A stretch of 64,000 nucleotides of DNA, taken from NCBI GenBank assembly GCA_020796225.1, contig CM036771.1, forward strand, positions 31,812,703 to 31,876,702, read 5' to 3'. How positions within the stretch are numbered: position 1 is the stretch's first letter; each line of letters starts with the position of its first letter. Under the pieces are notes generated by a model. The model saw nothing but the letters and a program-made list of their open reading frames with translations. It did no database searches and had not been told where the DNA came from. Below, piece after piece: positions 1,426-56,658 of the stretch. Origin of the DNA: Arion vulgaris (lineage: Eukaryota > Mollusca > Gastropoda > Stylommatophora > Arionidae). The position numbers were made by a program, and so were the translations under genes.

Positions 1426-1870
1426 ATATTGAAAGTGTGTCTGTATAGTGAGTGTCTACGATTGTTGGTAGGACTTTAAGTGTGCCACGACCACGAACAA
1501 GTTTGAGAACCCCTGGTCTAACAGGACGTTCTAGTACGGTTGATGAGTTAAATAGGCATCCTAGTATCTCCTCTTTGCTCTACCTAGATACGTGCACATA
1601 ATTAGACAGATAAATCAATGATATTTCAATTCATACAAATTATCAACGTTGAGGCTCACTGGTAAGTCTCTTAATTTTCTCTACAACAGAATCGATGTCT
1701 ATCCAATCAGTCTCTGACATGTGCTCAGTACCTATACAATAATCGATAGTGCCAGCTTCCAAGTTCTTACGCAACAGCCCCGAAGATGTTTTCGCTGAAA
1801 TCAGCTGTACATGTACTGGGAAAAGAAACGTGTTTCTTGGTACGGTAAACCAGTTCACTGTCACTGAGAT

Positions 1871-5503: not shown

Positions 5504-5700
5504 TAGTGGTTCTCAAACTTATTCAGCTAGCGCATCCCTTGAAGATGAGCCAAGACTCATACGGCGCAACCCTCCCCTAATTTCTTTCCCAAATTCCCGA
5601 ACATAATTAACTGTAACTTTCAAAGCGCAAGCGAAAAAGAAATGATTCACACTCTGAGCTTTACAGCAACGCTGTCCCCTAACAGCAACATTTACAGGCA
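5504..5700. mobile_element. possible hAT-like MITE left end
   Basis: It begins with 'agtggttctcaaact', a form typical of hAT inverted termini (CAGNGGTTCTCAAAC), followed by 'agcgcatcccttgaagatg'. I could not find the matching right terminus or an 8-bp duplication, so this is a weak call. Sequence at 6130-6260 has a similar flavour and may be its other half. Confidence 0.35.
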
Positions 5701-8215: not shown

Positions 8216-8955
8216 TCTTTCTCTTCTGATAGAAACAAACACTGCTCTTTTTTTACTGATTCCGTACCGTGGAACACTCAAGTGTAACTATTTCTTATCT
8301 GCCTGGACCACGCGTCGCTCAAAAGACGATTACTATTTTGTTGAGTTTTTATTATTTTTTGTTCCGATTGAAGATTTATATTAACCGGAAACTACTTAGA
8401 AGTGAAGGGTAAACGATAACGAATACATAGCAGCATGACTTGTGTTAGAAATTGAATTGAAACGGAGTTTATCATTCATTTTAGGATACCCTGTGACCGT
8501 TAAAAACTAGCGATTTTTATGAATGTTCATGATGCTACTTTGTGAACATTTAATAAACCATACATTCCTTCACTATTTTCTTAATGTTTGTGTATTCATA
8601 AATGTATTACATATATAAAGAGAGCAGTTAGACTGATTTATTCCACATAATGTTCATCAAGGCCCTTGGCAAGTTGGATTTTCGTTCTCACAATTTCAGT
8701 TAGTTTTTTAATACATGCTAATATTTTTCAAGCATAGTCAACACAACATTATATTTTCGGATACAATAAATATTTTATGAAAGTACATTCATTTATCTTT
8801 AATTTGATATATAATAAGTTCAACTTTAAATAATATTTAGAAACAATATTTTAGTTTAACTAAAGTATGTGTGCAATATTTTGGAAACTAAAAAAATAAT
8901 TCCGTACAGAGGCGAAAAAAACCTGGTAGTGAATCAGTTAAATATCTATGTAACG
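8216..8955. other. AT-rich unassigned sequence
   Basis: No gene or repeat recognised. The open frame around 8151-8384 has no protein-like composition. Confidence 0.4.
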
Positions 8956-9130
8956 CAGTGGTTCTCAATCTTTCTAATGCCGTGACCCTTTAATACAGTT
9001 CCTCATGTTGTGGTGCCTCCCAGCCATAAAATTATGTAACAATATTTATTTCTAATTATGATAAATATGTGTTATCCGATGGTCGTTCGACCCCCCAAAG
9101 GGATCGCGACCTACAGTTTTAGAACCACTG
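8956..9130 (+). mobile_element. SPIN/URR1-like hAT MITE (about 175 bp)
   Basis: It starts 'cagtggttctcaatc' and ends 'ttttagaaccactg', forming terminal inverted repeats of at least 12 bp. Inside are 'cctttaatacagttcctc', 'atgttgtggtgcc', 'ccataaaatta', 'ccgatggtcgttcg', 'accccccaaaggg' and 'atcgcgacc', in that order. These words and their order agree with my memory of the non-autonomous hAT elements called SPIN and rodent URR1. The internal part is shortened. No clean 8-bp target duplication is visible (flanks atgtaacg and atgcatga). It has no coding capacity. Confidence 0.75.
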
Positions 9131-9138
9131 ATGCATGA

Positions 9139-9312
9139 GAAGACTACAGTAAAACTACGTAGCAAAATACCGAAACTCGGAAAAACATAGTACTGAAATT
9201 TTACACAGTACACAAACAATATATAGTGACATTTCGACACAAAGGACTTTATCAAGTAACATTTACAACCGAAGCGATGAAATTCTTGGACGGCAGACAT
9301 AACATATACAGT
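9139..9312 (-). repeat. Penelope-like element tail fragment
   Basis: The minus strand carries 'acttgataaagtcctttgtg' then 'tcgaaatgtc', and 'gtagttttactgtagtctt' near its end. It is a more diverged version of the 5868 and 41.2 kb tails and abuts the SPIN-like MITE. Confidence 0.65.
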
Positions 9313-9314
9313 CA

Positions 9315-9560
9315 CACAATCTTCTTCTTCGAACGGTCCACATCGACTACTTATTGACCACTCTTGGCGATTTGTATGTGATCTGAGCCTAAGACTGATT
9401 GTACGCTGTACCAGTTATGCGCCTGCAAGTAGGCCAGCACATCCCATTTCTGCGATGCTTTATTATTTACTAGAGTAGCTTCCCTAGGACCCTACCTAGG
9501 TCGCTTCTTATGACATGCTTTGTACGTCACAGTGTTACTATTCTTTGCTCCCCTTGCAAC
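9315..9560 (-). repeat. SINE-B copy
   Basis: Reverse-oriented SINE-B running from the (TTC) tail through 'gcctgcaagtaggccagca' to 'ctattctttgctccccttg'. The 5' head is cut off at about 9560. Confidence 0.8.
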
Positions 9561-15535: not shown

Positions 15536-15654
15536 ACTTCAGTTATACAGTTTTAATACACGGTAATCGTGCGGTAGATAGTTTTAATACAGTCTTCGCC
15601 ATTATCAATAATATTCATATAATATATAAAATAGTATTACATGTATCAATATAA

Positions 15655-15960
15655 GGGAAGACAGCAGTAAAACTATGTAGCAATGTCGATATAAGGGAAG
15701 ACTGTAGTAAAACTATGTAGCAATGTCGATATAAGGAAGACTGCAGTAAAACTATGTAGCAATGTCGATATAAGGAAGACTGCAGTAAAACTATGTAGCA
15801 ATGTCGATATAAGGAAGACTGCAGTAAAACTTTGTAGCAATGCCAATATAAGGGAAGACTGCAGTAAAACTATGTAGCAATGCCAATATAAGGGAAGACT
15901 GCAGTAAAACTTTGTAGCAATATCAATATAAGGGAAGACTGCAGTAAAACTTTGTAGCAA
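15655..15960 (-). repeat. 39-bp tandem repeat at a Penelope tail, 8 copies
   Basis: The unit holds 'gactgcagtaaaactatg' and 'tagcaatgtcgatataagg'. It joins directly to the Penelope tail at 15961. A five-unit version of the same repeat occurs at 53960-54160, also beside a Penelope tail. The open frame reading FTAVF...STLLHS is a by-product of the repeat. Confidence 0.85.
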
Positions 15961-16130
15961 TGGCGAAACAAGAAAAAACAAAGTACCGTAGTAAGTACAT
16001 AAACAATATCAATATACAGCGACGTTTCGACCAAAAGGCCTTTATCAAGCAAAGGATACAACAGAAGTGAAGATAGACTTCTTAAACGGCAGACATAACA
16101 TATACAATCTGACAATCATAAATATAAAAT
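15961..16130 (-). repeat. Penelope-like element tail with hammerhead-like core
   Basis: The minus strand contains 'cttgataaaggccttttgg' then 'tcgaaacgtcgctgtat'. It is the best match to a hammerhead layout of the four tails here: GGCC/GGTC can pair as stem II and ACGTC follows GAA. Confidence 0.75.
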
Positions 16131-17229: not shown

Positions 17230-18085
17230 AGAGGATAATTGACCAGGTGACCACGGTTGCGACCCTACAAAAAGGGCAAGAATGGATCCCAACAGATGGT
17301 AGCATGACCAACTATCTCAACGTTATCATTGCTCTTGGAAGAGAATGTAGAGATTGGGGAAACGTGAAGGCGGATCTTATAGTTAAGCAGCTGATAGAAG
17401 ATAATGCAAGGGATGCTGATGTTGTTGTATATACCGATGTGTCGGTTCATCGTGATGAGAGGTCGGGCTGGGGTTTCTTGGCTAATGCGCATGGTAGGGT
17501 TGTTGCAAAGTGGAGCGTACAGGACAACTACTTCTAGTATGAGGATGGAGGTTGAGGCCGTTACTGCTGCCCTCCATTGGCTTTCTGAGACTCCATTTAC
17601 TAGGACCGTTGTTGTATCTGATTCTCAGTTAATGCTTCACAAGATCCAGAAGGGCAGGTTTCGGTATGTGTGGATGTCATCTACATACTTTTCTAACCTC
17701 CAGAGGCTTAAGTGGATATACTGTCCTGGGCATGCGGGTGTTTGCAGGAATGAGAGAGAGGGCAGGCTTATATCAACAGCATGGATTGTTGGGGAGTGGA
17801 AGATGGATAAGGAGGATGTTCTTCGGTCTCTTTACGACTGCCTGTTGGATGAAGACACTAAAATAGATATTGAATCGAACCAGCGATTTAAGCAGTTTGG
17901 AGTTACCTGTTGTACAAGTAGAACTGGATGTCTGAAGGGCAGAATGAGGAGTGTGTTTAATCAGCGAGCCACGGGAACCATTAGTATGCATACTCTTCGA
18001 TATCTGTTGGGGAGACTGAGCCCCTATTGGTTTGCACGAAGTGCAAATGACGGCAGTTTAGTAACCAATAACCACTACACTTACA
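17230..18085 (+). pseudogene. LINE-3 ORF fragment with RNase H domain
   Basis: The forward frames join into one RNase H domain. 'VVVYTDVSVHRDERSGWGF' holds the first Asp, 'MRMEVEAVTAALHW' the Glu, 'VVVSDSQLMLHKIQKGRF' the second Asp, and 'WIYCPGHAGVCRNEREGR' the last block. In that last block the usual ERAD is EREG, so the final catalytic Asp is lost. A frameshift near 17515 separates the first Asp from the rest. The C-terminal tail reads 'TLRYLLGRLSPYWFARSAND' and ends with 'agtaaccaataaccac'. The domain belongs to I- or Nimbus-like LINEs with RNase H. It is dead as it stands, and its reverse transcriptase is absent. Confidence 0.85.
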
Positions 18086-18323
18086 CACACACACACACAC
18101 TACACATAGATGGGGAGGAGTCCTTTCCTTTTTGGAAACCAAATAGATATTGAACAACACGAGCAGTTTAGTTACACCAATAAACGACTAGCAATGATAT
18201 TTAATCACACCACGAACACATAGAAGAAGAATCTTTCGGAACCGACAGGGAAGGCAATGACGGCAGTTTAGTAACCAATAACCACTACACTTACACACAC
18301 ACACACACACACACTACACATAG
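18047..18323 (+). repeat. tandem duplication of the LINE-3 3' end with CA runs
   Basis: 'aatgacggcagtttagtaac' followed by a (CA)n run occurs at 18047 and again at 18258, a spacing of 211 bp. Related scraps 'ggaaccgacaggga' at about 18239 and 18340 suggest the duplication reaches into the neighbouring LINE-5. Confidence 0.75.
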
Positions 18324-27368: not shown

Positions 27369-27944
27369 TCAGCAATCAGTGAAGTCTCAGCAATCAGTGA
27401 AGTCTCAGCAATCAGTGAAGTTTCAGCAATCAGTGAAGTCTCAGCAATCAGTGAAGTCTCAGCAATCAGTGAAGTCTAAGCAATCAGTGAAGTCTCAGCA
27501 ATCAGTGAAGTCTCAGCAATCAGTGAAGTCTAAGTAATCAGTGAAGTCTCAGCAATCAGTGAAGTCTAAGCAATCAGTGAAGTCTTAGCAATCAGTGAAG
27601 TCTCAGCAATCAGTGAAGTCTAAGTAATCAGTGAAGTCTCAGCAATCAGTGAAGTCTAAGCAATCAGTGAAGTCTAAGCAATCCGTGAAGTCTAAGCAAT
27701 CAGTGAAGTCTAAGTAATCAGTGAAGTCTCAGCAATCAGTGAAGTCTCAGCAATCAGTGAAGTCTAAGCAATCCGTGAAGTCTAAGCAATCAGTGAAGTC
27801 TAAGTAATCAGTGAAGTCTCAGCAATCAGTGAAGTCTAAGCAATCAGTGAAGTCTCAGCAATCAGTGAAGTCTCAGCAATCAGTGAAGTCTAAGCAATCA
27901 GTGAAGTCTTAGCAATCAGTGAAGTCTCAGCAATCAGTGAAGTA
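27369..27944. repeat. 18-bp minisatellite, 32 copies
   Basis: The unit is cagcaatcagtgaagtct, with C/A variants at the first base and occasional 'taatca' forms. Total length is 576 bp, exactly 32 units with no indels. It is a multiple of 3, but TAA variants break every long frame, so I do not call it coding. Confidence 0.95.
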
Positions 27945-28365: not shown

Positions 28366-29640
28366 GGCCCCCCTCCCCTATAATATTTAGAGTAGGTCGT
28401 GATATGAATTGAATGACGCAATCCGTATTCTGTTTTCTTGTCAATTATTTATATTCCTAAAGAGTCTTATACACACACACAATGTGTAGTATTAGTTAGT
28501 TTGTTGTTACTATTTAGCTGCATTAGAGAACTGCAAACAATACAGCGAGAGTGAGACCACGAAAAGATGAATAGATGTGCATAGCAGAATTCTGTCAAAA
28601 AGCAAAAATAACTATCACCCAAGCCACTAGAGCCGAGCAAGACAAAAAAAAAACACAGAAAACCACGACTGGGCAACATCCCGCTAACATTGTGACGACA
28701 AAAGAAGAAGAAGCATTACAGACTGAGATCTACTCATTTTACAATGCTCTCACACACACACACAAAATGTGATATGTTTAGCTTTAAAGCATATTTACAT
28801 AGAATATGGGGGAATGATAAAGAACATTTATCACCTAGAGCAGCGGTTTTCAAAATACTGTCTGATGGCTCACAGTATGCAGTCCGTACTGACAATGGCA
28901 AAAGCGACTGGTTTATGGTTAAAACGGGAGTACAACAAGGTTGCATTCTATCCTCTCTCTTGTTTGGAGTGGATACTGACTGGGTGATGAGAAAATGTTG
29001 TAAGGGCGAAACTAACATCGATTGGATAGAAAATAGACAACTGGAAGATTTGAATTTTGCAGATGATATTGCATTGTTAAGTAAAAATAGTAAAGAAATG
29101 CAAAGAAAAAGTCATTTATATCATCAAAAGTTGAACTGCACATAGGCTATAAAAAGACAAATATAGTGATGAGCCTTCTGATCGACAAGGCATGCAGATA
29201 TTACGCAGGAATCCAAAACGATTAAAATAACAGAGCAGTTCACCTATTTAGGTAGCAATTTTGAATGCACGAGAGATACCAAAAAAAGAAATAATGCTAC
29301 GAATTGGCAAAGCAACATCAGCTTTTAAAAGTTTAAATAAAATATGGAACTGCAAGTTATATAGTTTTAAAACTAAATTACGAATTTTCAATTCAAATGT
29401 TGTATCAATCCTAACATATGCTAGCGAGAATTGGAAAATGACTAAAGATATAGAAAGCAAGTTGAATACATTTGAAAATAGATGTCTGCGAAAAATATTG
29501 AACACAAAATGGAACGAATTCAGGAGAAGTGAAGAAATCAGAGAAATATCTGATCAACCACCAGTAACAACTGTTGTAAGAAAGAGAAGATGACGCTACT
29601 GTGAACATACTCTGAGAAGAAATAATCAAATAATCACAAA

Positions 29641-33980: not shown

Positions 33981-34050
33981 TAGCAGGCGAACGTAAAAAA
34001 TCAATAGAACAACTAGATTAAAACAGATACACATTGAAAGAATGAACATT

Positions 34051-35685
34051 TATACAGTGACAATGAAATCAAAATACCACAGTAACTACCGATACTTTAT
34101 ACAGTGACAATGAAATCAAAATACCACAGTAACTACCGATACTTTATACAGTGACAATGAAATCAAAATACCACAGTAACTACCGATACTTTATACAGTG
34201 ACAATGAAATCAAAATACCACAGTAACTACCGATACTTTATACAGTGACAATGAAATCAAAATACCACAGTAACTACCGATACTTTATACAGTGACAATG
34301 AAATCAAAATACCACAGTAACTACCGATACTTTATACAGTGACAATGAAATCAAAATACCACAGTAACTACCGATACGTTATACAGTGACAATGAAATCA
34401 AAATACCACAGTAACTACCGATACTTTATACAGGACAATGAAATCAAAATCACAGTAACACGATACTTTATACAGTGACAAGAATCAAAATACCACAGTA
34501 ACTACCGATACTTTATACAGTGACAATGAAATCAAAATACCACAGTAACTACCGATACTTTATACAGTGACAATGAAATCAAAATACCACAGTAACTACC
34601 GATACTTTATACAGTGACAATGAAATCAAAATACCACAGTAACTACCGATACTTTATACAGTGACAATGAAATCAAAATACCACAGTAACTACCGATACT
34701 TTATACAGTGACAATGAAATCAAAATACCACAGTAACTACCGATACTTTATACAGTGACAATGAAATCAAAATACCACAGTAACTACCGATACTTTATAC
34801 AGTGACAATGAAATCAAAATACCACAGTAACTACCGATACTTTATACAGTGACAATGAAATCACAATACCACAGTAACTACCGATACGTTATACAGTGAC
34901 AATGAAATCAAAATACCACAGTAACTACCGATACTTTATACAGTGACAATGAAATCAAAATACCACAGTAACTACCGATACTTTATACAGTGACAATGAA
35001 ATCAAAATACCACAGTAACTACCGATACTTTATACAGTGACAATGAAATCAAAATACCACAGTAACTACCGATACTTTATACAGTGACAATGAAATCAAA
35101 ATACCACAGTAACTACCGATACTTTATACAGTGACAATGAAATCAAAATACCACAGTAACTACCGATACTTTATACAGTGACAATGAAATCAAAATACCA
35201 CAGTAACTACCGATACTTTATACAGTGACAATGAAATCAAAATACCACAGTAACTACCGATACTTTATACAATACAATGAAATCACTAAACCACAGAACT
35301 ACCGATACATCTTATACTGTACAATGAAATCAAAATATCACAGTAACTACCGATACTTTATACAGTGACAATGAAATCAAAATACCACAGTAACTACCGA
35401 TACTTTATACAGTGACAATGAAATCAAAATACCACAGTAACTACCGATACTTTATACAGTGACAATGAAATCAAAATACCACAGTAACTACCGATACTTT
35501 ATACAGTGACAATGAAATCAAAATACCACAGTAACTACCGATACTTTATACAGTGACAATGAAATCAAAATACCACAGTAACTACCGATACTTTATACAG
35601 TGACAATGAAATCAAAATACCACAGTAACTACCGATACTTTATACAGTGACAATGAAATCAAAATACCACAGTAACTACCGATAC
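34051..35685. repeat. 47-bp minisatellite, about 35 copies
   Basis: The unit contains 'ttatacagtgacaatgaaat', 'caaaataccacagtaac' and 'taccgatac'. Copies are almost identical, apart from two patches full of single-base deletions (34430-34495 and 35270-35335) that look like consensus errors. Confidence 0.95.
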
Positions 35686-39857: not shown

Positions 39858-40150
39858 TAGTATGGACTACATATGATTGCCCCCTTCCGTCTGTCTATCA
39901 CAGATACATTGATGACTGTATTGGCATCACTGATATGCCTGAAGCCGATTTGTCACGCTTCATTAATTTCATTAATGTTTTCAACCCTTCTATTCGTTTT
40001 ACTTCTCACATCTCCACTACTTGTGTCAACTTTCTTGACATTACTATCACCTTACGCCTATCCGCTATCACTACATCAGTATATTACAAGCCTACTGATG
40101 CACATAGTTTCTCCTCTATACTTCTTCCCATCCCCGGGCTTGTCGTGACT
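39858..40150 (+). pseudogene. Penelope-like RT, C-terminal fragment (block C)
   Basis: Frame from the junction: VYHRYIDDCIGITD (RYIDD, the two catalytic Asp residues), 'RFTSHISTTCVNFLDITITL', then 'SVYYKPTDAHSF'. A frameshift at about 40090-40150 moves reading into the next frame. FLDI and YYKPTD are standard Penelope landmarks. Confidence 0.85.
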
Positions 40151-40152
40151 CT

Positions 40153-40971
40153 TTGCCATTCTCGCAGCTCTTACGCCTTCGTGGCCTTTGTAGTGAGGAC
40201 GATGATTTTCTTGAGAGAGCTCGCGAGATGCTTGATTTCTTTCGTAGGCGCCTATACCCGGAGAGGGTGCTTGTCTCGGCTATGCATCGAGTTCAGAAAA
40301 TCACTCGCCAGCAGGCCCTTACCAGTCAGCATAGGACTACTAACTCTGACAGAGTAAAACTTATCTTAACTTACCACCCCCATAGTTCCCTGGTGAAAAA
40401 TGTTTTATTCCGTCATCTGTCTCTCCTTAGATCAGATCCTGAGACCCGTTCTGTCTTCCTCAACTATCCTTTGGTGTCTTACAGACGGGACAGAAGTCTT
40501 AAGGATATGTTGGTACACAGTCGCCTTAAGTCCAATATCCAGACTCATTTTGGCACTGTCCAGTGTGGCCGTCGGCGTTGCAACACGTGTGCTTATGTGA
40601 TACAGACGCGTACTGTATCTTTTCCTTTAGGCACGTTTCTTATTGACGATGGGTTCACATGCGAGTCCCGTAATCTTATCTATGCCATCATCTGTAAGCG
40701 GTGTAACAAGGCTTATATCGGCGAGACAGGCAAGAGGCTCAGTGACCGATTCGCCCAACACTTACGCGACATACGCCAATGCTCTGTGACCCCTGTAGCC
40801 ACCCATTTCAATGATACTGGCCATTTAGGTGCTCACGATGTCCAGGTCACAGCCATCCGATCATGTTCCTCGGATGATCGCAGTCGATTTGCTCTGGAGA
40901 ATCGGTTGATTTCTTTGTATGGTACCTTGCGACCACGCGGGCTCAACGTATTACATTCTTATGCTTCTTAG
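40153..40971 (+). pseudogene. Penelope-like element connector and GIY-YIG endonuclease domain
   Basis: A 272-codon open frame, the longest in the window. Residues about 1-100 are the RT-EN connector (LRLRGLCSEDDDFLERA, then RRLYPERVL). A Cys cluster 'CGRRRCNTCAYV' sits at about 136-147. The GIY-YIG-type core 'LIYAIICKRCNKAYIGETGK' is at about 175-194, then 'RLSDRFAQHLRDI' with the catalytic Arg and His region, and 'ENRLISLYGTLRPRGLN' with the Glu. This single-strand-nicking nuclease primes insertion in the family. The domain looks undamaged, although the upstream RT frame is broken. Confidence 0.9.
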
Positions 40972-43923: not shown

Positions 43924-45322
43924 TCATCATCATCAGGTGCCGTCTCCACATCGAAGGTTCCTCCAGCAATGAATCTCCAGCATCCTCTGTCTTTCGCCAT
44001 GGTGTTGCACACTGCCAGCCTGTAACCTGTCCATTTCTTAAAGTTTCCTCCCACTTATCTCTCGGTCTTCCTCTTGCTCTTCCCCTTCAACTTTCCCCTC
44101 TAGTAAATGTTTCATCATGGTGTCATGTCTTTTTATGTGCCCAAAATACTTTACTTGTCTGAATTTTATTTCTCTTAATAATTGTTTCTTCATGCCTAGT
44201 TTTCCTAAAACTTGTTTATTTGTCTGTTTTTCTGTTCATGAAACTCTGCCTATTCTTCTATATATCCACATCTCAAATGCATCAATTCTGTCTTCTAACT
44301 GCTTGTTCATTGTCCATGTTTCCGAACCATACATTAATATAGGATATATATACCATTTGATCATTCTCATTTTTAGCCTGTTTGTGATTTTTTGGATGTC
44401 AGTAACTTTCTCATACTATTGAAATTATCCGTGGCCATTCCTATTCTCTTTTTAATTTCTGTTATACATCTGCCATCATCTGACCGAGATATAAGAAGCT
44501 TTTTACTTGATGTAGTAATTCTCCATGTATTTTTATATTCATTTTAGGTTTTCCATTTCCTTGTTGATCACCACAGTTTTTGTTTTCTGTATGTTAATGT
44601 CTAATCCATATTCCTTGCTAGTTCTTGTAGATCTTGTTCATTTTCTGCTACCAATACTGTGTCATCTGCATATCTTAAGTTGTTTATTATTTTTCCATTG
44701 ATCTTGAGTCCTGGCATTCCCTCTAGTTGTTTGAAGATTTTCTCTGTGTAGATGTTAAATAGGCTTGATGACAGAATGCATCCTTGTCTCACTCCTCTCT
44801 TTATGTCTATGTATGGAGAGTAGCTATTTTCATATTTTATTACTGCTTTCTGTTCCCAGTATATGTTACTTATTAGTCTGATATCATCCCCATCTAGGCC
44901 TATTTCTTGTAGACATATGATTAGCTTTTCATGTTGAACTCTGTCAAAAGCTTTGCTATAATCAAGGAAACACAAGTAGATACTTTTTGCACTTCTATAT
45001 ACTTGTCAGCGAGTAGTCTTATACAAAGTATTGCCTCTCTTTTTCCTCTGTTCTTTCTAAAGCCAACCTGTTCTTCTCCTACTTCTATGTCTATCTTGTT
45101 TTTAATTCTTTCATGTATGATCTTGAGTAGTATTTTTGTTATGTGGCTCATCAGGCTAATTGTCCTATAGTCTGTGCACTCCTGTGCTTTGGGCTGTTTG
45201 GGTAGTGGTATGAATACTGATGTCTTCAAGTCTCTTGGTATATATCTTGTGTTATATATATCATTGCACAAATCTGTAATGGTTGAAATACCAAAATCCT
45301 CTAAGGAGGTTAACATTTCCAC
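43924..45322 (-). pseudogene. RTE-like LINE: RT domain and tail, flanked by a 12-bp target duplication
   Basis: On the minus strand, from 45322 inward, the RT fingers read 'VFIPLPKQPKAQECTDYRTI' and 'IDIEVGEEQVGFRKNRG'. The palm is CFLDYSKAFDRV (first Asp), 'DIKRGVRQGCILSSSLFNIY', and 'NNLRYADDTVLVAENEQDLQ' (YADD). A degraded thumb and tail follow, with 'KWTGYRLAVCNTMAKDRGCW', ending in (TGA)n at 43924-43935. The flanks agtatcacataa (43912-43923 and 45323-45334) are identical. It is 5' truncated (no endonuclease), with one frameshift near 44950 between two open frames. Confidence 0.9.
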
Positions 45323-45334
45323 AGTATCACATAA

Positions 45335-45500
45335 GTATGCAAAAATTTTATTAAATATAAAACTAACGACAATCCCACGTTTCGATCATGGATCTTTATC
45401 ACGGAGACACGTAGATAGAATAAACACTAAATAAACTAGAACATAGATCTTTATCAAGGAGACACATAGATAGAATAAGCACTAAATAAACTAGAACATA
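45335..45500 (+). repeat. element X 3' end, copy 1, right half
   Basis: 'aaaactaacgacaatccc', 'acgtttcgatcatggatc' and 'tttatcacggagacac', then a 55-bp partial duplication. It matches 59690-59740 (inverse). Confidence 0.75.
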
Positions 45501-46070: not shown

Positions 46071-46091
46071 TGATAAAGAATACTAATAAAG

Positions 46092-47195
46092 GAACATGAC
46101 AGTGACAAACATCAGCCACACGAGTTGATATCATACATGAAAACTCAGGGAACATGATAGTGACAAACATCAGACACACGAGTTGATATCATACATGAAA
46201 ACTCAGGGAACATGACAGTGACAAACATCAGCCACACGAGTTGACATCATACATGAAAACTCAGGGGAAAATGACAGTGACAAACATCAGACACACGAGT
46301 TGATATCATACATGAAAACTCAGGGAACATGACAGTGACAAACATCAGACACACGAGTTGATATCATACATGAAAACTCAGGGAACATGACAGTGACAAA
46401 CATCAGACACACGAGTTGATATCATACATGAAAACTCAGGGAACATGACAGTGACAAACATCAGACACACGAGTTGATATCATACATGAAAACTCAGGGA
46501 ACATGACAGTGACAAACATCAGCCACACGAGTTGATATCATACATGAAAACTCAGGGAACATGACAGTGACAAATATCAGCCACACGAGTTGACATCATA
46601 CATGAAAACTCAGGGAACATGACAGTGACAAATATCAGCCACACGAGTTGACATCATACATGAAAACTCAGGGAACATGACAGTGACAAACATCAGCCAC
46701 ACGAGTTGACATCATACATGAAAACTCAGGGAACATGACAGTGACAAACATCAGCCACACGAGTTGATATCATACATGAAAACTCAGGGAACATGACAGT
46801 GACAAACATCAGACACACGAGTTGACATCATACATGAAAACTCAGGGAACATGACAGTGACAAACATCAGCCACACGAGTTGATATCATACATGAAAACT
46901 CAGGGAACATGACAGTGACAAACATCAGCCACACGAGTTGACATCATACATGAAAACTCAGGGAACATGACAGTGACAAACATCAGACACACGAGTTGAT
47001 ATCATACATGAAAACTCAGGGAACATGACAGTGACAAACATCAGCACACGAGTTGAATCATACATGAAAACTCAGGGAACATGACAGTGATAAACATCAG
47101 CCACACGAGTTGATATCATACATGAAAACTCAGGGAACATGACAGTGACAAACATCAGCCACACGAGTTGATATCATACATGAAAACTCAGGGAA
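46092..47195. repeat. 58-bp minisatellite, 19 copies
   Basis: The unit contains 'gacagtgacaaacatcag', 'acacgagttgatatcatac' and 'atgaaaactcagggaacat'. Variants alternate between cagcc/cagac and gatatc/gacatc. It starts right after a LINE-2 tail. Confidence 0.95.
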
Positions 47196-50700: not shown

Positions 50701-52797
50701 AGTATAGATGTTCTCAAGCCTCACTGTGGCAATATAGATAACTATAGATGTTCTCAAGCCTCACTGTGGCAATATAGATAACTATAGATGTTCTCAAGCC
50801 TCACTGTGGCAATATAGATAACTATAGATGTTCTCAAGCCTCACTGTGGCAATATAGATAACTATAGATGTTCTCAAGCCTCACTGTGACAATATAGATA
50901 ACTATAGATGTTCTCAAGCCTCACTGTGGCAATATAGATAACTATAGATGTTCTCAAGCCTCACTGTGACAATATAGATAACTATAGATGTTCTCAAGCC
51001 TCACTGAGACAATATAGATAACTATAGATGTTCTCAAGCCTCACTGAGATAATATAGATAACTATAGATGTTCTCAAGCCTCACTGAGATAATATAGATA
51101 ACTATAGATGTTCTCAAGCCTCACTGAGATAATATAGATAACTATAGATGTTCTCAAGTCTCACTGAGACAATATAGATAACTATAGATGTTCTCAAGCC
51201 TCACTGAGATAATATAGATAACTATAGATGTTCTCAAGCCTCACTGAGATAATATAGATAACTATAGATGTTCTCAAGCCTCACTGAGATAATATAGATA
51301 ACTATAGATGTTCCAGCCTCACTAGACATATAGATTATAGATGTTCTCAAGTCTCACTGAGATAATATAGATAACTATAGATGTTCTCAAGTCTCACTGA
51401 GACAATATAGATAACTATAGATGTTCTCAAGCCTCACTGAGACAATATAGATAACTATAGATGTTCTCAAGCCTCACTGTGACAATATAGATAACTATAG
51501 ATGTTCTCAAGCCTCACTGAGATAATATAGATAACTATAGATGTTCTCAAGCCTCACTGAGATAATATAGATAACTATAGATGTTCTCAAGCCTCACTGA
51601 GATAATATAGATAACTATAGATGTTCTCAAGCCTCACTGAGACAATATAGATAACTATAGATGTTCTCAAGTCTCACTGAGACAATATAGATAACTATAG
51701 ATGTTCTCAAGCCTCACTGAGATAATATAGATAACTATAGATGTTCTCAAGCCTCACTGTGACAATATAGATAACTATAGATGTTCTCAAGTCTCACTGA
51801 GACAATATAGATAACTATAGATGTTCTCAAGCCTCACTGAGACAATATAGATAACTATAGATGTTCTCAAGCCTCACTGTGACAATATAGATAACTATAG
51901 ATGTTCTCAAGTCTCACTGAGATAATATAGATAACTATAGATGTTCTCAAGCCTCACTGTGACAATATAGATAACTATAGATGTTCTCAAGCCTCACTGT
52001 GACAATATAGATAACTATAGATGTTCTCAAGCCTTACTAAGATAATATAGATAACTATAGATGTTCTCAAGCCTCACTGTGACAATATAGATAACTATAG
52101 ATGTTCTCAAGCCTCACTGAGATAATATAGATAACTATAGATGTTCTCAAGCCTCACTGTGACAATATAGATAACTATAGATGTTCTCAAGCCTCACTGT
52201 GACAATATAGATAACTATAGATGTCCTCAAGCATCACTGAGATAATATAGATAACTATAGATGTTCTCAAGCCTCACTGTGACAATATAGATAACTATAG
52301 ATGTTTTCAAGCCTCACTGAGATAATATAGATAACTATAGATGTTCTCAAGCCTCACTGTGACAATATAGATAACTATAGATGTTCTCAAGCCTCACTGA
52401 GATAATATAGATAACTATAGATGTTCTCAAGCCTCACTGTGACAATATAGATAACTATAGATGTTCTCAAGCCTCACTGAGATAATATAGATAACTATAG
52501 CTGTTCTCAAGCCTCACTGTGACAATATAGATAACTATAGATGTTCTCAAGCCTCACTGAGACAATATAGATAACTATAGATGTTCTCAAGCCTCACTGA
52601 GATAATATAGATAACTATAGATGTTCTCAAGCCTCACTGAGATAATATAGATAACTATAGATGTTCTCAAGCCTCACTGAGATAATATAGATAACTATAG
52701 ATGTTCTCAAGCCTCACTGAGATAATATAGATAACTATAGATGTTCTCAAGCCTCACTGTGACAATATAGATAACTAGATGTTCTCAAGCCTCACTG
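50701..52797. repeat. 40-bp minisatellite, about 52 copies
   Basis: The unit is 'tagatgttctcaagcctcac' plus 'tgNgNNaatatagataacta'. Three subtypes are seen (tgtggc, tgtgac, tgagat/tgagac). The left end is almost all tgtggc. Much of 52040-52540 alternates tgagat and tgtgac, giving an 80-bp higher-order unit. One collapsed unit is near 51310-51345. Confidence 0.95.
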
Positions 52798-53575
52798 AGA
52801 ATGTTACCGTAACTAACTCACACAATACCTTACCTATCACACACTCACAATATCATATAACACACACAATGCCTTACCTAACACACACTCACAATGCCTT
52901 ATCTAACACACACTGACAATACCCTAACACACATACAATGCCTTACCTAACACACACTGACAATACCCTAACACACACACAATGCCTTACCCTAACACAC
53001 ACTACAATACCTAACACACATCAATGCCTTACCTAACACACACTGACAATACCTAACACACATACAATGCCTTACCTAACACACATGACAATCCTAACAC
53101 ACACACAATGCCTTCTAATACACACTGACAATACCTAACACACATACAATGCCTTACCCTAACACACACTGACAATACCCTAACAAACATACACACACAA
53201 TGCCTTGCCTAACACACACTGACAATACCTAACACAACAATGCCTTACTAATACACACTGACAATACCCTAACACACACACAATGCCTTACCTAACACAC
53301 ACTGACAATACCCTAACACACATACAATGCCTTACCTAACACACACTGACAATACCTAACACACACAATGCCTACCTAACACACATGACAATACCTAACA
53401 CACATACAATGCCTTACCCTAACACACACTGACAATACCTAACACACACACAATGCCTTACCCTAACACACACTGACAATACCTAACACACACACAATGC
53501 CTTACCTAACACACACAATGCCTTACCTACACACTGATAATACCCTAACACATATACAATGCCTTACCCTAACAC
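52798..53575. repeat. degenerate CA-rich minisatellite, about 46-bp period
   Basis: 'acacaatgccttacctaac' alternates with 'acacactgacaataccctaa'. Many single-base deletions make the period irregular. Confidence 0.85.
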
Positions 53576-53849: not shown

Positions 53850-54415
53850 TTATCTTCTTCGAACGCTCCATATCGACCACGTGTTAAACCACTCTTTGTG
53901 ATTTGTATGTGATCTGAGCCTAAGAGTGATTGTACGTTGTGCCAGTTATGCGTCTAATATTATCGATATAAGAGAGACTGCAGTAAAACTATGTAGCAAT
54001 GTCGATATTAGAGAAGACTGCAGTAAAACTATGTAGCAATGTCGATATGAAGAAGACTGTAAGGTAAAACTATGTAGCAATGTCGATATAAGAGAAGACT
54101 GTAGTAAAACTATGTAGCAATGTCGATATAAGGAAGACTGCAGTAAAACTATGTAGCAATGGGGGAAACACCTAAAAACAAAGTACTGTAGTTTTACAAA
54201 ATAAAAAAACAATTTTTGTAAAACTACAGTGTTTGATTTTTACGTGTTTCGCCAGTTATGCGCCTACAAGTAGGCCAGTACATTCGATTTATGCGGCACT
54301 TTTTATTGACTAGGGTAGCTTCCTTAAGCCCCTATCTCAGTCGCATCTTACGACATGCCTTGTAGATCGCAGTGTTACTATTCTTTGCTCCTCTGCGAGT
54401 CCCGACAAGAAACGT
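53850..54415 (-). repeat. SINE-B split by a Penelope tail
   Basis: SINE-B halves at 53850-53952 and 54251-54415 are continuous once the insert is removed. gccagttatgcg is present on both sides (53941-53952 and 54251-54262). Confidence 0.85.
53953..54250 (-). repeat. Penelope tail insert with terminal hairpin
   Basis: About five units of the 39-bp repeat ('gactgcagtaaaactatg'...) are followed by an inverted repeat. 'acaaagtactgtagttttac' faces 'tgtaaaactacagtgtttg', and the arms extend to 'gggaaacacc' and 'acgtgtttcgcc'. Confidence 0.8.
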
Positions 54416-54984: not shown

Positions 54985-56658
54985 ATGCAGAGTTGTTTAA
55001 TTATAAATATAGTCCTAGTTTGTTAATTATAAATATAGATAGAGTTGACTAGTATAAATATAGACAGAGTTGACTAGTATAAATATACACAGAGTTGACT
55101 AGTATAAATATAGACAGAGTTGACTAGTATAAATATAGACAGAGTTGACTAGTATAAATATAGACAGTTGACTAGTATAAATATAGACAGAGTTGACTAG
55201 TATAAATATAGACAGTTGACTAGTATAAATATAGACAGAGTTGACTAGTATAAATAACACAGAGTTGACTAGTATAAATATAGACAGAGTTGACTAGTAT
55301 AAATATAGACAGAGTTGACTAGTATAAATATGACAGAGTTGACTAGTATAAATATAAAGGTTGACTAATATAAATATAGAAGAGTTGTCTAGTATAAATA
55401 TGACAGAGTTGACTAATAAAATATAGCAGAGTTGACTAATATAAATATAGACAGAGTGACTAGTATAAATATGAAGAGTTGACTAATATAAATATAGACA
55501 GAGACTGAGTAAATATATGAATGTGATAGAAGACTTATAGACAGGTTGATAGTATAAGAAAGACGCAGTAAACTAGTATGAAATATAGACAGAGTGACTA
55601 GTTTAAATAAAACAATTTTGTAAAACTATAGACAGGTTGCAGTATTAAATAGAGACAGATTTGACTATTATGACTAGTAGCCAGAGTTGATCTAGTATAA
55701 ATATAGACAGGTTACTATGTTTGAGACAAGAAGTGAGCTTCATATACGAATATGCACGCAGAGTTGACTAATAAATATAAAAGTTCTAGTATAAATATAG
55801 ATAGACATGACTGGGTTAAATAGACAGATGACTGATATAATCAAATTATCTCACACAGATGCTGCTAGTTAATTATGACCCTTCAGAAGCTTACTAAGTT
55901 AATATAGATAGAGCGACTATATCACTGAACAAGTATTCATTATAAATATGACAAGGCTTTATTATTTAATGAATATAGATCAATAATCTACGTACTAGTT
56001 ATAGAATATAGACATAGCTTATCTCATATGGAATAACCGATAGTTGACTCTCATCAACATTCGATCAGGTTTGACTGTTTAAATAGTAGACAAGAGTTGA
56101 CTTGATATAAGATGTGACAATTATCTATATGAATATAGCAGAGTTGTAATTATAAATATAGTCTGAGTTGTCTAGTATAAATATAGACAGAGTTGACTAA
56201 TATAAATATAGACAGAGTTGACTAATATAAATATAGACAGAGTTGACTAGTATAAACATAGACAGAGTTGACTATATAAATATAGACAGAGTGACTAGAT
56301 AAATATAGATCAGAGTTGACTAAATAAATATAGACAGAGTTGACTAGAATAAATATAGACAGAGTTGACTAGTATAAATATACACAGAGTTGACTAGTAT
56401 AAATATAGACAGAGTTGACTAGAATAAATATAGACAGAGTTGTCTGGAATAAATATACACAGAGTTGACTAGAATAAATATAGACAGAGTTGACTAGAAT
56501 AAATATAGACAGAGTTGACTAGTATAAATATAGACAGAGTTGACTAGTATAAATATAGACAGAGTTGACTAGAATAAATATAGACAGAGTTGACTAGTAT
56601 AAATATAGACAGAGTTGACTAATATAAATATAGACAGAGTTGTCTATTATAAATATTC
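54985..56658. repeat. 25-bp minisatellite with a corrupted middle
   Basis: The unit is 'agagttgactagtataaata' plus 'tagac'. Units are clear at 55020-55480 and 56150-56650. Between about 55500 and 56150 the sequence is a blend of repeat units and the flanking sequence from 53.95-54.9 kb (see findings). Confidence 0.9.

What the first reader, a model, noticed from the sequence alone, without database searches (positions are those of the whole stretch)
8956..9130. SPIN/URR1-like hAT element: candidate horizontally transferred transposon
Seen: hAT-type inverted ends and an internal word order (cctttaatacagttcctc, atgttgtggtgcc, ccataaaatta, ccgatggtcgttcg, accccccaaaggg) inside 175 bp. Known, from memory: these words match SPIN/URR1, non-autonomous hAT elements of tetrapods. 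SPIN is famous for horizontal transfer and has been reported from a triatomine bug and a pond snail. Inference: this genome belongs to the set of hosts that acquired SPIN.
Basis: partly seen in the sequence, partly recalled or inferred. Interest (0 to 1): 0.78.

Follow-up and report, generated by a model that had tools for sequence, protein, structure and literature searches.

The report
Old SPIN-type jumping gene in slug
This is one worn copy of a short jumping-gene family whose ends closely match DNA printed from mice, in what is probably a land slug genome; it likely adds a host to a transposon known for crossing between very different animals.

Summary
Window 8956-9130 is a 175-bp non-autonomous hAT element with 16-nt inverted ends; a profile built without it finds it at E 2e-54. 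A genome search with the 198-bp family consensus gave 1,876 first-look candidates in 1.52 Gb, 40 scored. Target duplications are 8 bp and follow nnnTAnnn, the TcBuster rule; SPIN is placed in the same Buster group (PMC3499496). Assembly figures point to the slug Arion vulgaris; no gene confirmed this.

I found no SPIN or URR1 reference in the collections searched. Mouse DNA printed in papers does match: an Adh5 stretch agrees at 65/78 bases from the terminus inwards, and two Ate1 primers at 18/19 and 18/20. Against SPIN as I recall it, the ends agree at 76/78 and 80/83, a lead only.

Horizontal transfer is the best explanation but was not tested with a transposase. I found no autonomous partner in the 60 loci examined. 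The best scored copy is 97% like the consensus, so the family looks long silent. A SPIN-like element is already published from a freshwater snail (PMC5440852): this is a new member of a known kind.

The parts
8956..9130 (+). Non-autonomous SPIN/URR1-type hAT element (MITE), 175 bp, one copy of a family with a 198-bp consensus
   Evidence: leave-one-out profile E 2e-54; 40 scored copies and 40; consensus
8956..8971 (+). Left terminal inverted repeat
   Evidence: 16 nt, 88% complementary to the right end
9115..9130 (-). Right terminal inverted repeat
8956..9033 (+). 5' region shared with a mouse Adh5 (FDH) gene stretch
   Evidence: consensus 1-78: 65/78, E 3e-18; window copy local score 89
9076..9089 (+). 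Junction of a 24-bp deletion relative to the family consensus, between two ATGGTC words
   Evidence: profile alignment; sequences; word position
8948..8955 (+). Left flank ATGTAACG, candidate target duplication
   Evidence: 4 of 8 match the right flank; fits nnnTAnnn on this side only
9131..9138 (+). Right flank ATGCATGA, candidate target duplication, degraded

Best explanation
A fossil copy of a SPIN/URR1-type MITE. Shown: inverted ends, 175 bp with no room for a transposase, many genomic copies, 8-bp duplications of nnnTAnnn sites, ends shared with mouse DNA. Inferred from known hAT biology: a Buster-group (SPIN-type) transposase made elsewhere in the genome bound the ends, cut the element out and pasted it into TA-centred sites; the transposase source was then lost and copies decayed. 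Inferred: the SPIN lineage entered the ancestors of this probable slug by horizontal transfer, long after land and freshwater pulmonates parted.
For: Target rule nnnTAnnn: 23 of 33 two-ended copies agree at 6 or more of 8 flank bases, mean 6.03 against 3.60 between different copies; T at position 4 in 30/33, A at 5 in 28/33. Mouse matches: 65/78 with score 101 against a shuffle maximum of 35; primers 18/19 and 18/20, 20/21. SPIN is placed in the Buster group and TcBuster target is nnnTAnnn (PMC3499496). Copies 94-97% like the consensus among the 40 scored; simulation fits a mean divergence near 9-10%, about 55-61 My at the rate assumed in PMC9392753, against a land/freshwater pulmonate split near 199 Mya.
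Against: No SPIN or URR1 reference was found in the collections searched, so the SPIN name rests on recall plus mouse DNA whose papers do not name the repeat. No transposase of this family was found in 60 loci. The interior differs from SPIN as recalled. The window copy's own target duplication is 4 of 8, and the unseeded mouse primer falls on a segment deleted in the window copy. Terminal sequences can be held by transposase binding, which weakens identity as proof of transfer.
Confidence: 0.75

Rival explanations
1. Vertical inheritance: a SPIN-type element has lived in molluscs since before the land/freshwater pulmonate split (or far longer) and stayed active through a resident transposase until tens of millions of years ago; likeness to mouse is kept by binding-site constraint.
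For: A SPIN-like hAT is also reported in Biomphalaria (PMC5440852). The shared parts are the ends, where transposase would bind, and the interior differs from SPIN as recalled. Many Buster-like sequences live in this genome: 71 matches to TcBuster.
Against: 76/78 and 80/83 agreement with recalled SPIN over a mollusc-mammal split is hard to keep by constraint; other Buster-like ends in this genome are clearly different.
Confidence: 0.14
2. A separate Buster-group family that merely shares terminal sequence with SPIN/URR1, not a member of it.
For: No SPIN reference or transposase could be compared; Buster elements are reported to share about 106 bp of terminal likeness (PMC4298943, passage).
Against: Buster1 has the TIR CAGGGCTTCTTAAAC and resident Buster-like loci here have CAGTGTTTCYCAA, while this family matches mouse DNA at 65/78.
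Confidence: 0.1
3. Mammalian contamination of the assembly.
For: Likeness to mouse DNA.
Against: Copies are spread over many chromosome-scale contigs, have an interior not found in the mouse stretch, and the window copy sits beside repeats of this genome.
Confidence: 0.01

Closest known systems
SPIN (SPACE INVADERS) non-autonomous elements and rodent URR1 (hAT, Buster group)
   Same: Ends agree at 76/78 and 80/83 with SPIN as recalled; printed mouse DNA matches at 65/78, 18/19, 18/20 and 20/21; nnnTAnnn target sites.
   Different: The AT-rich interior (about consensus 79-115) does not align well with SPIN as recalled, and the element is shorter.
SPIN-like hAT of Biomphalaria glabrata (PMC5440852, passage)
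   Same: Pulmonate host, about 1,000 copies reported there, DNA transposons reported as not recent and without intact transposases.
   Different: Sequence not available for comparison; freshwater, not land, pulmonate.
Buster1 (PMC4298943, passages)
   Same: Buster group, MITE derivatives, horizontal transfer reported, TGGGTCGCG-type subterminal words (the consensus here holds GGGGTCGCGACCC).
   Different: TIR CAGGGCTTCTTAAAC against CAGTGGTTCTCAA here.

Membership tests
hAT superfamily MITE | Short inverted ends beginning CAG | tested here: met
   16-nt arms in the window copy; the first 13 bases pair perfectly in the consensus
hAT superfamily MITE | 8-bp target site duplication | tested here: met
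   23 of 33 two-ended family copies at 6/8 or better, 8 of 33 perfect; the window copy itself only 4/8
Buster group of hAT | Target site nnnTAnnn | tested here: met
   T at 4 in 30/33, A at 5 in 28/33; rule from PMC3499496
SPIN/URR1 | Terminal sequence of the curated consensus | tested here: inconclusive
   Reference not found; 76/78 and 80/83 against a recalled sequence; mouse DNA 65/78, 18/19, 18/20
SPIN/URR1 | Transposase of the SPIN clade in trans | tested here: inconclusive
   No family ends within about 1.5 kb of 30 of 150 hATC matches and 30 of 71 TcBuster matches; the rest were not fetched
Horizontally transferred SPIN | Divergence between hosts far below that of host genes; patchy distribution | not testable with these tools
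   No related animal genomes are held and no transposase was found

The most novel reading that the evidence does not exclude
Pulmonate molluscs have been long-term carriers of SPIN: the slug family is as old as, or older than, the vertebrate invasions, and slugs, which are intermediate hosts of mammalian lungworms, were a land-side source or stepping stone for SPIN in tetrapods rather than only recipients.
Probability: 0.12. Interest if true: 0.65.

Novelty: new member of a known kind. Interest (0 to 1): 0.38.

Why it matters
SPIN is a classic case of DNA crossing between distant animals. A large, old family in a probable land slug would extend its molluscan hosts from freshwater to land pulmonates and give a roughly dated point for testing whether parasite-sharing hosts exchanged the element, and in which direction.

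Tried and rejected
Reference search: patterns in viral contigs and genome contigs and blastn in phages and plasmids gave no match. Rfam on the window gave none at gathering scores. Long family words were in no paper; shorter words were in 10 papers (9 listed, 3 opened) and in 3 papers (1 opened). The original SPIN papers PMC2579371 and PMC3004126 are not held. Paper search listed nothing of use (20 of 2,876 listed).

Autonomous partner: of the loci from PF05699 (30 of 150 matches) and recalled TcBuster (30 of 71 matches) none shows the family ends; the weak hits were L111 at E 0.5 and a 13-base match in L073 at E 0.52. L115, L123, L125 and L128 carry different Buster-like ends. Recalled TcBuster found no PDB chain.

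Unbiased dating by an exact-word sample, and host identification by COX1, could not be done: the pattern request did not complete in 12 tries and the PF00115 request in 8 (13, 21, 75, 83, 88, 91, 106, 108). Contamination was considered and rejected on the spread of copies.

Full report
OBSERVATION. Window 8956-9130 begins CAGTGGTTCTCAA and ends in its inverted counterpart; the arms are 16 nt and 88% complementary. All five quoted words occur once each in the window, inside the element. A profile from 28 other copies, without the window copy, finds the element end to end at 179 bits, E 2e-54; the next window hit scores 3.2 bits and the best of 20 shuffled windows 7.9 bits. It is not chance.

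FAMILY. The window lies in a genome of 1.52 Gb and 3,227 contigs. A search with the window copy gave 1,609 first-look candidates, 40 scored; a search with the consensus gave 1,876, 40 scored, at 94-97% identity. Candidates are not confirmed copies. I fetched the 40 copies (one is the window copy). Of these, 29 passed a full-length filter, window copy included, and gave a 198-bp majority consensus; 11 did not pass. The window copy lacks 24 bp between two ATGGTC words. L010 and L012 show a like loss and L034 an expansion of the segment.

MECHANISM. Both ends could be placed in 33 of the 40 copies. In 23 of 33 the 8-bp flanks agree at 6 or more places (8 perfectly); the mean is 6.03 against 3.60 between different copies, where 9.6% of pairs reach 6. 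The left flank has T at position 4 in 30/33 and A at position 5 in 28/33. Three copies agree at 3 or fewer, and the window copy at 4 of 8. The pattern is the nnnTAnnn rule reported for TcBuster, and SPIN is placed in the same Buster group (PMC3499496, passages). Cut-and-paste by a transposase made elsewhere is inferred from hAT biology. No partner was found: 30 of 150 hATC matches and 30 of 71 TcBuster matches were fetched with about 1.5 kb on each side, and none shows the family ends; the weak hits were L111 at E 0.5 and 13 bases in L073 at E 0.52. The other matches were not examined.

IDENTITY. No SPIN or URR1 sequence was found in the collections searched. I therefore searched paper texts for family words. 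In one search, 10 papers held one, 9 were listed and I opened 3, 3 papers, 1 opened. A mouse FDH (Adh5) gene stretch printed in PMC8376875 (passage) matches the consensus at 65/78, beginning exactly at the terminus, with E 3e-18 and local score 101 against a maximum of 35 in 1000 shuffles; the window copy scores 89. Thirteen of the 78 bases were the search word. Only the 5' end was found in that stretch. Two mouse Ate1 genotyping primers (PMC2767504 and PMC2837401, same primers, passages) match consensus 180-198 at 18/19, 13 of them the search word, and 124-143 at 18/20, not a search word. The second segment is deleted in the window copy. A mouse KvDMR1 primer (PMC6334472, passages) matches consensus 50-70 at 20/21, 13 of them the search word, and the window copy at 17/21. 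I saw no naming of the repeat in these passages; that mouse carries URR1/SPIN is recalled. Against SPIN as I recall it the ends agree at 76/78 and 80/83, and the interiors do not align well. That is a lead, not a test.

HOST. The 26 largest contigs sum to 1,447.1 Mb, and the next is 1.7 Mb. The Arion vulgaris assembly is described as 1.54 Gb with 93.8% on 26 scaffolds (PMC9392753, passages); 1,447.1 Mb is 94.0% of 1.54 Gb. Against this, the paper gives a scaffold N50 of 63.3 Mb and the genome as held gives 64.3 Mb. Arion vulgaris is likely but no gene confirmed it.

AGE. The 29 copies average K 0.059 from the consensus, but they were picked for likeness to the window copy. In a simulation with all copies of one age, a best copy at 3% and a 40th at 6% of 1,876 fit a mean near 9-10%; with 5,000 copies about 10-11%. 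At the mollusc rate assumed in PMC9392753, 1.645e-9 per site per year (passage), K 0.059 is about 36 My and 0.09-0.10 about 55-61 My. The paper puts the land/freshwater pulmonate split near 199 Mya (159-228). The rate is an assumption, so the dates are rough. With no scored copy above 97%, the family looks silent.

INTERPRETATION. Ends this close between a probable slug and mouse are hard to explain by descent from their common ancestor, so horizontal transfer of the SPIN lineage is the best explanation. It is inferred: binding constraint can slow change in the ends, and no transposase or host-gene comparison was possible. A SPIN-like hAT of about 1,000 copies is published from Biomphalaria glabrata (PMC5440852, passage) and SPIN from Rhodnius (PMC11614815, passages); Lymnaea is recalled. 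I saw no report of SPIN in a land slug in the listings (20 of 24 papers listed; 3 of 3; 20 of 148; 20 of 34; 15 of 949); the Arion genome paper shows zero occurrences of 'spin'. These capped listings do not prove absence from print.

Noticed in passing
window 9320-9528: Right flank holds an interspersed repeat with 9 other stretches of 150 bp or more at 78-84% identity in the window.
   Followed up: partly
window 9139-9165: Just right of the element, 27 bp resemble the 40-bp tandem unit of 15649-15966 and 53963-54161 at about 89-93%; the element seems to lie beside a stray unit of that repeat.
   Followed up: partly
window 27369-27943, 34049-35685, 46091-47195, 50703-52800, 55028-56656: The window is rich in minisatellite arrays, with units of 18 to 58 bp and lengths of about 0.6 to 2.1 kb in these five.
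   Followed up: no
window 40108-40971, 44601-45385, 28696-29145, 17398-18153, 2475-2810: Retroelement pieces: a GIY-YIG domain ORF (Penelope-like by my reading), reverse transcriptase pieces and RNase H pieces.
   Followed up: no
L115:185, L123:391, L125:504, L128:645: Loci with Buster-like transposase matches carry ends CAGTGTTTCYCAA, most with TA in the middle of the 8-bp left flank: other Buster-like families in this genome.
   Followed up: partly
window 1500-1515 and 5505-5520: Two lone sites resembling the element's ends (93.75% over 16 bases), not significant by profile search.
   Followed up: no
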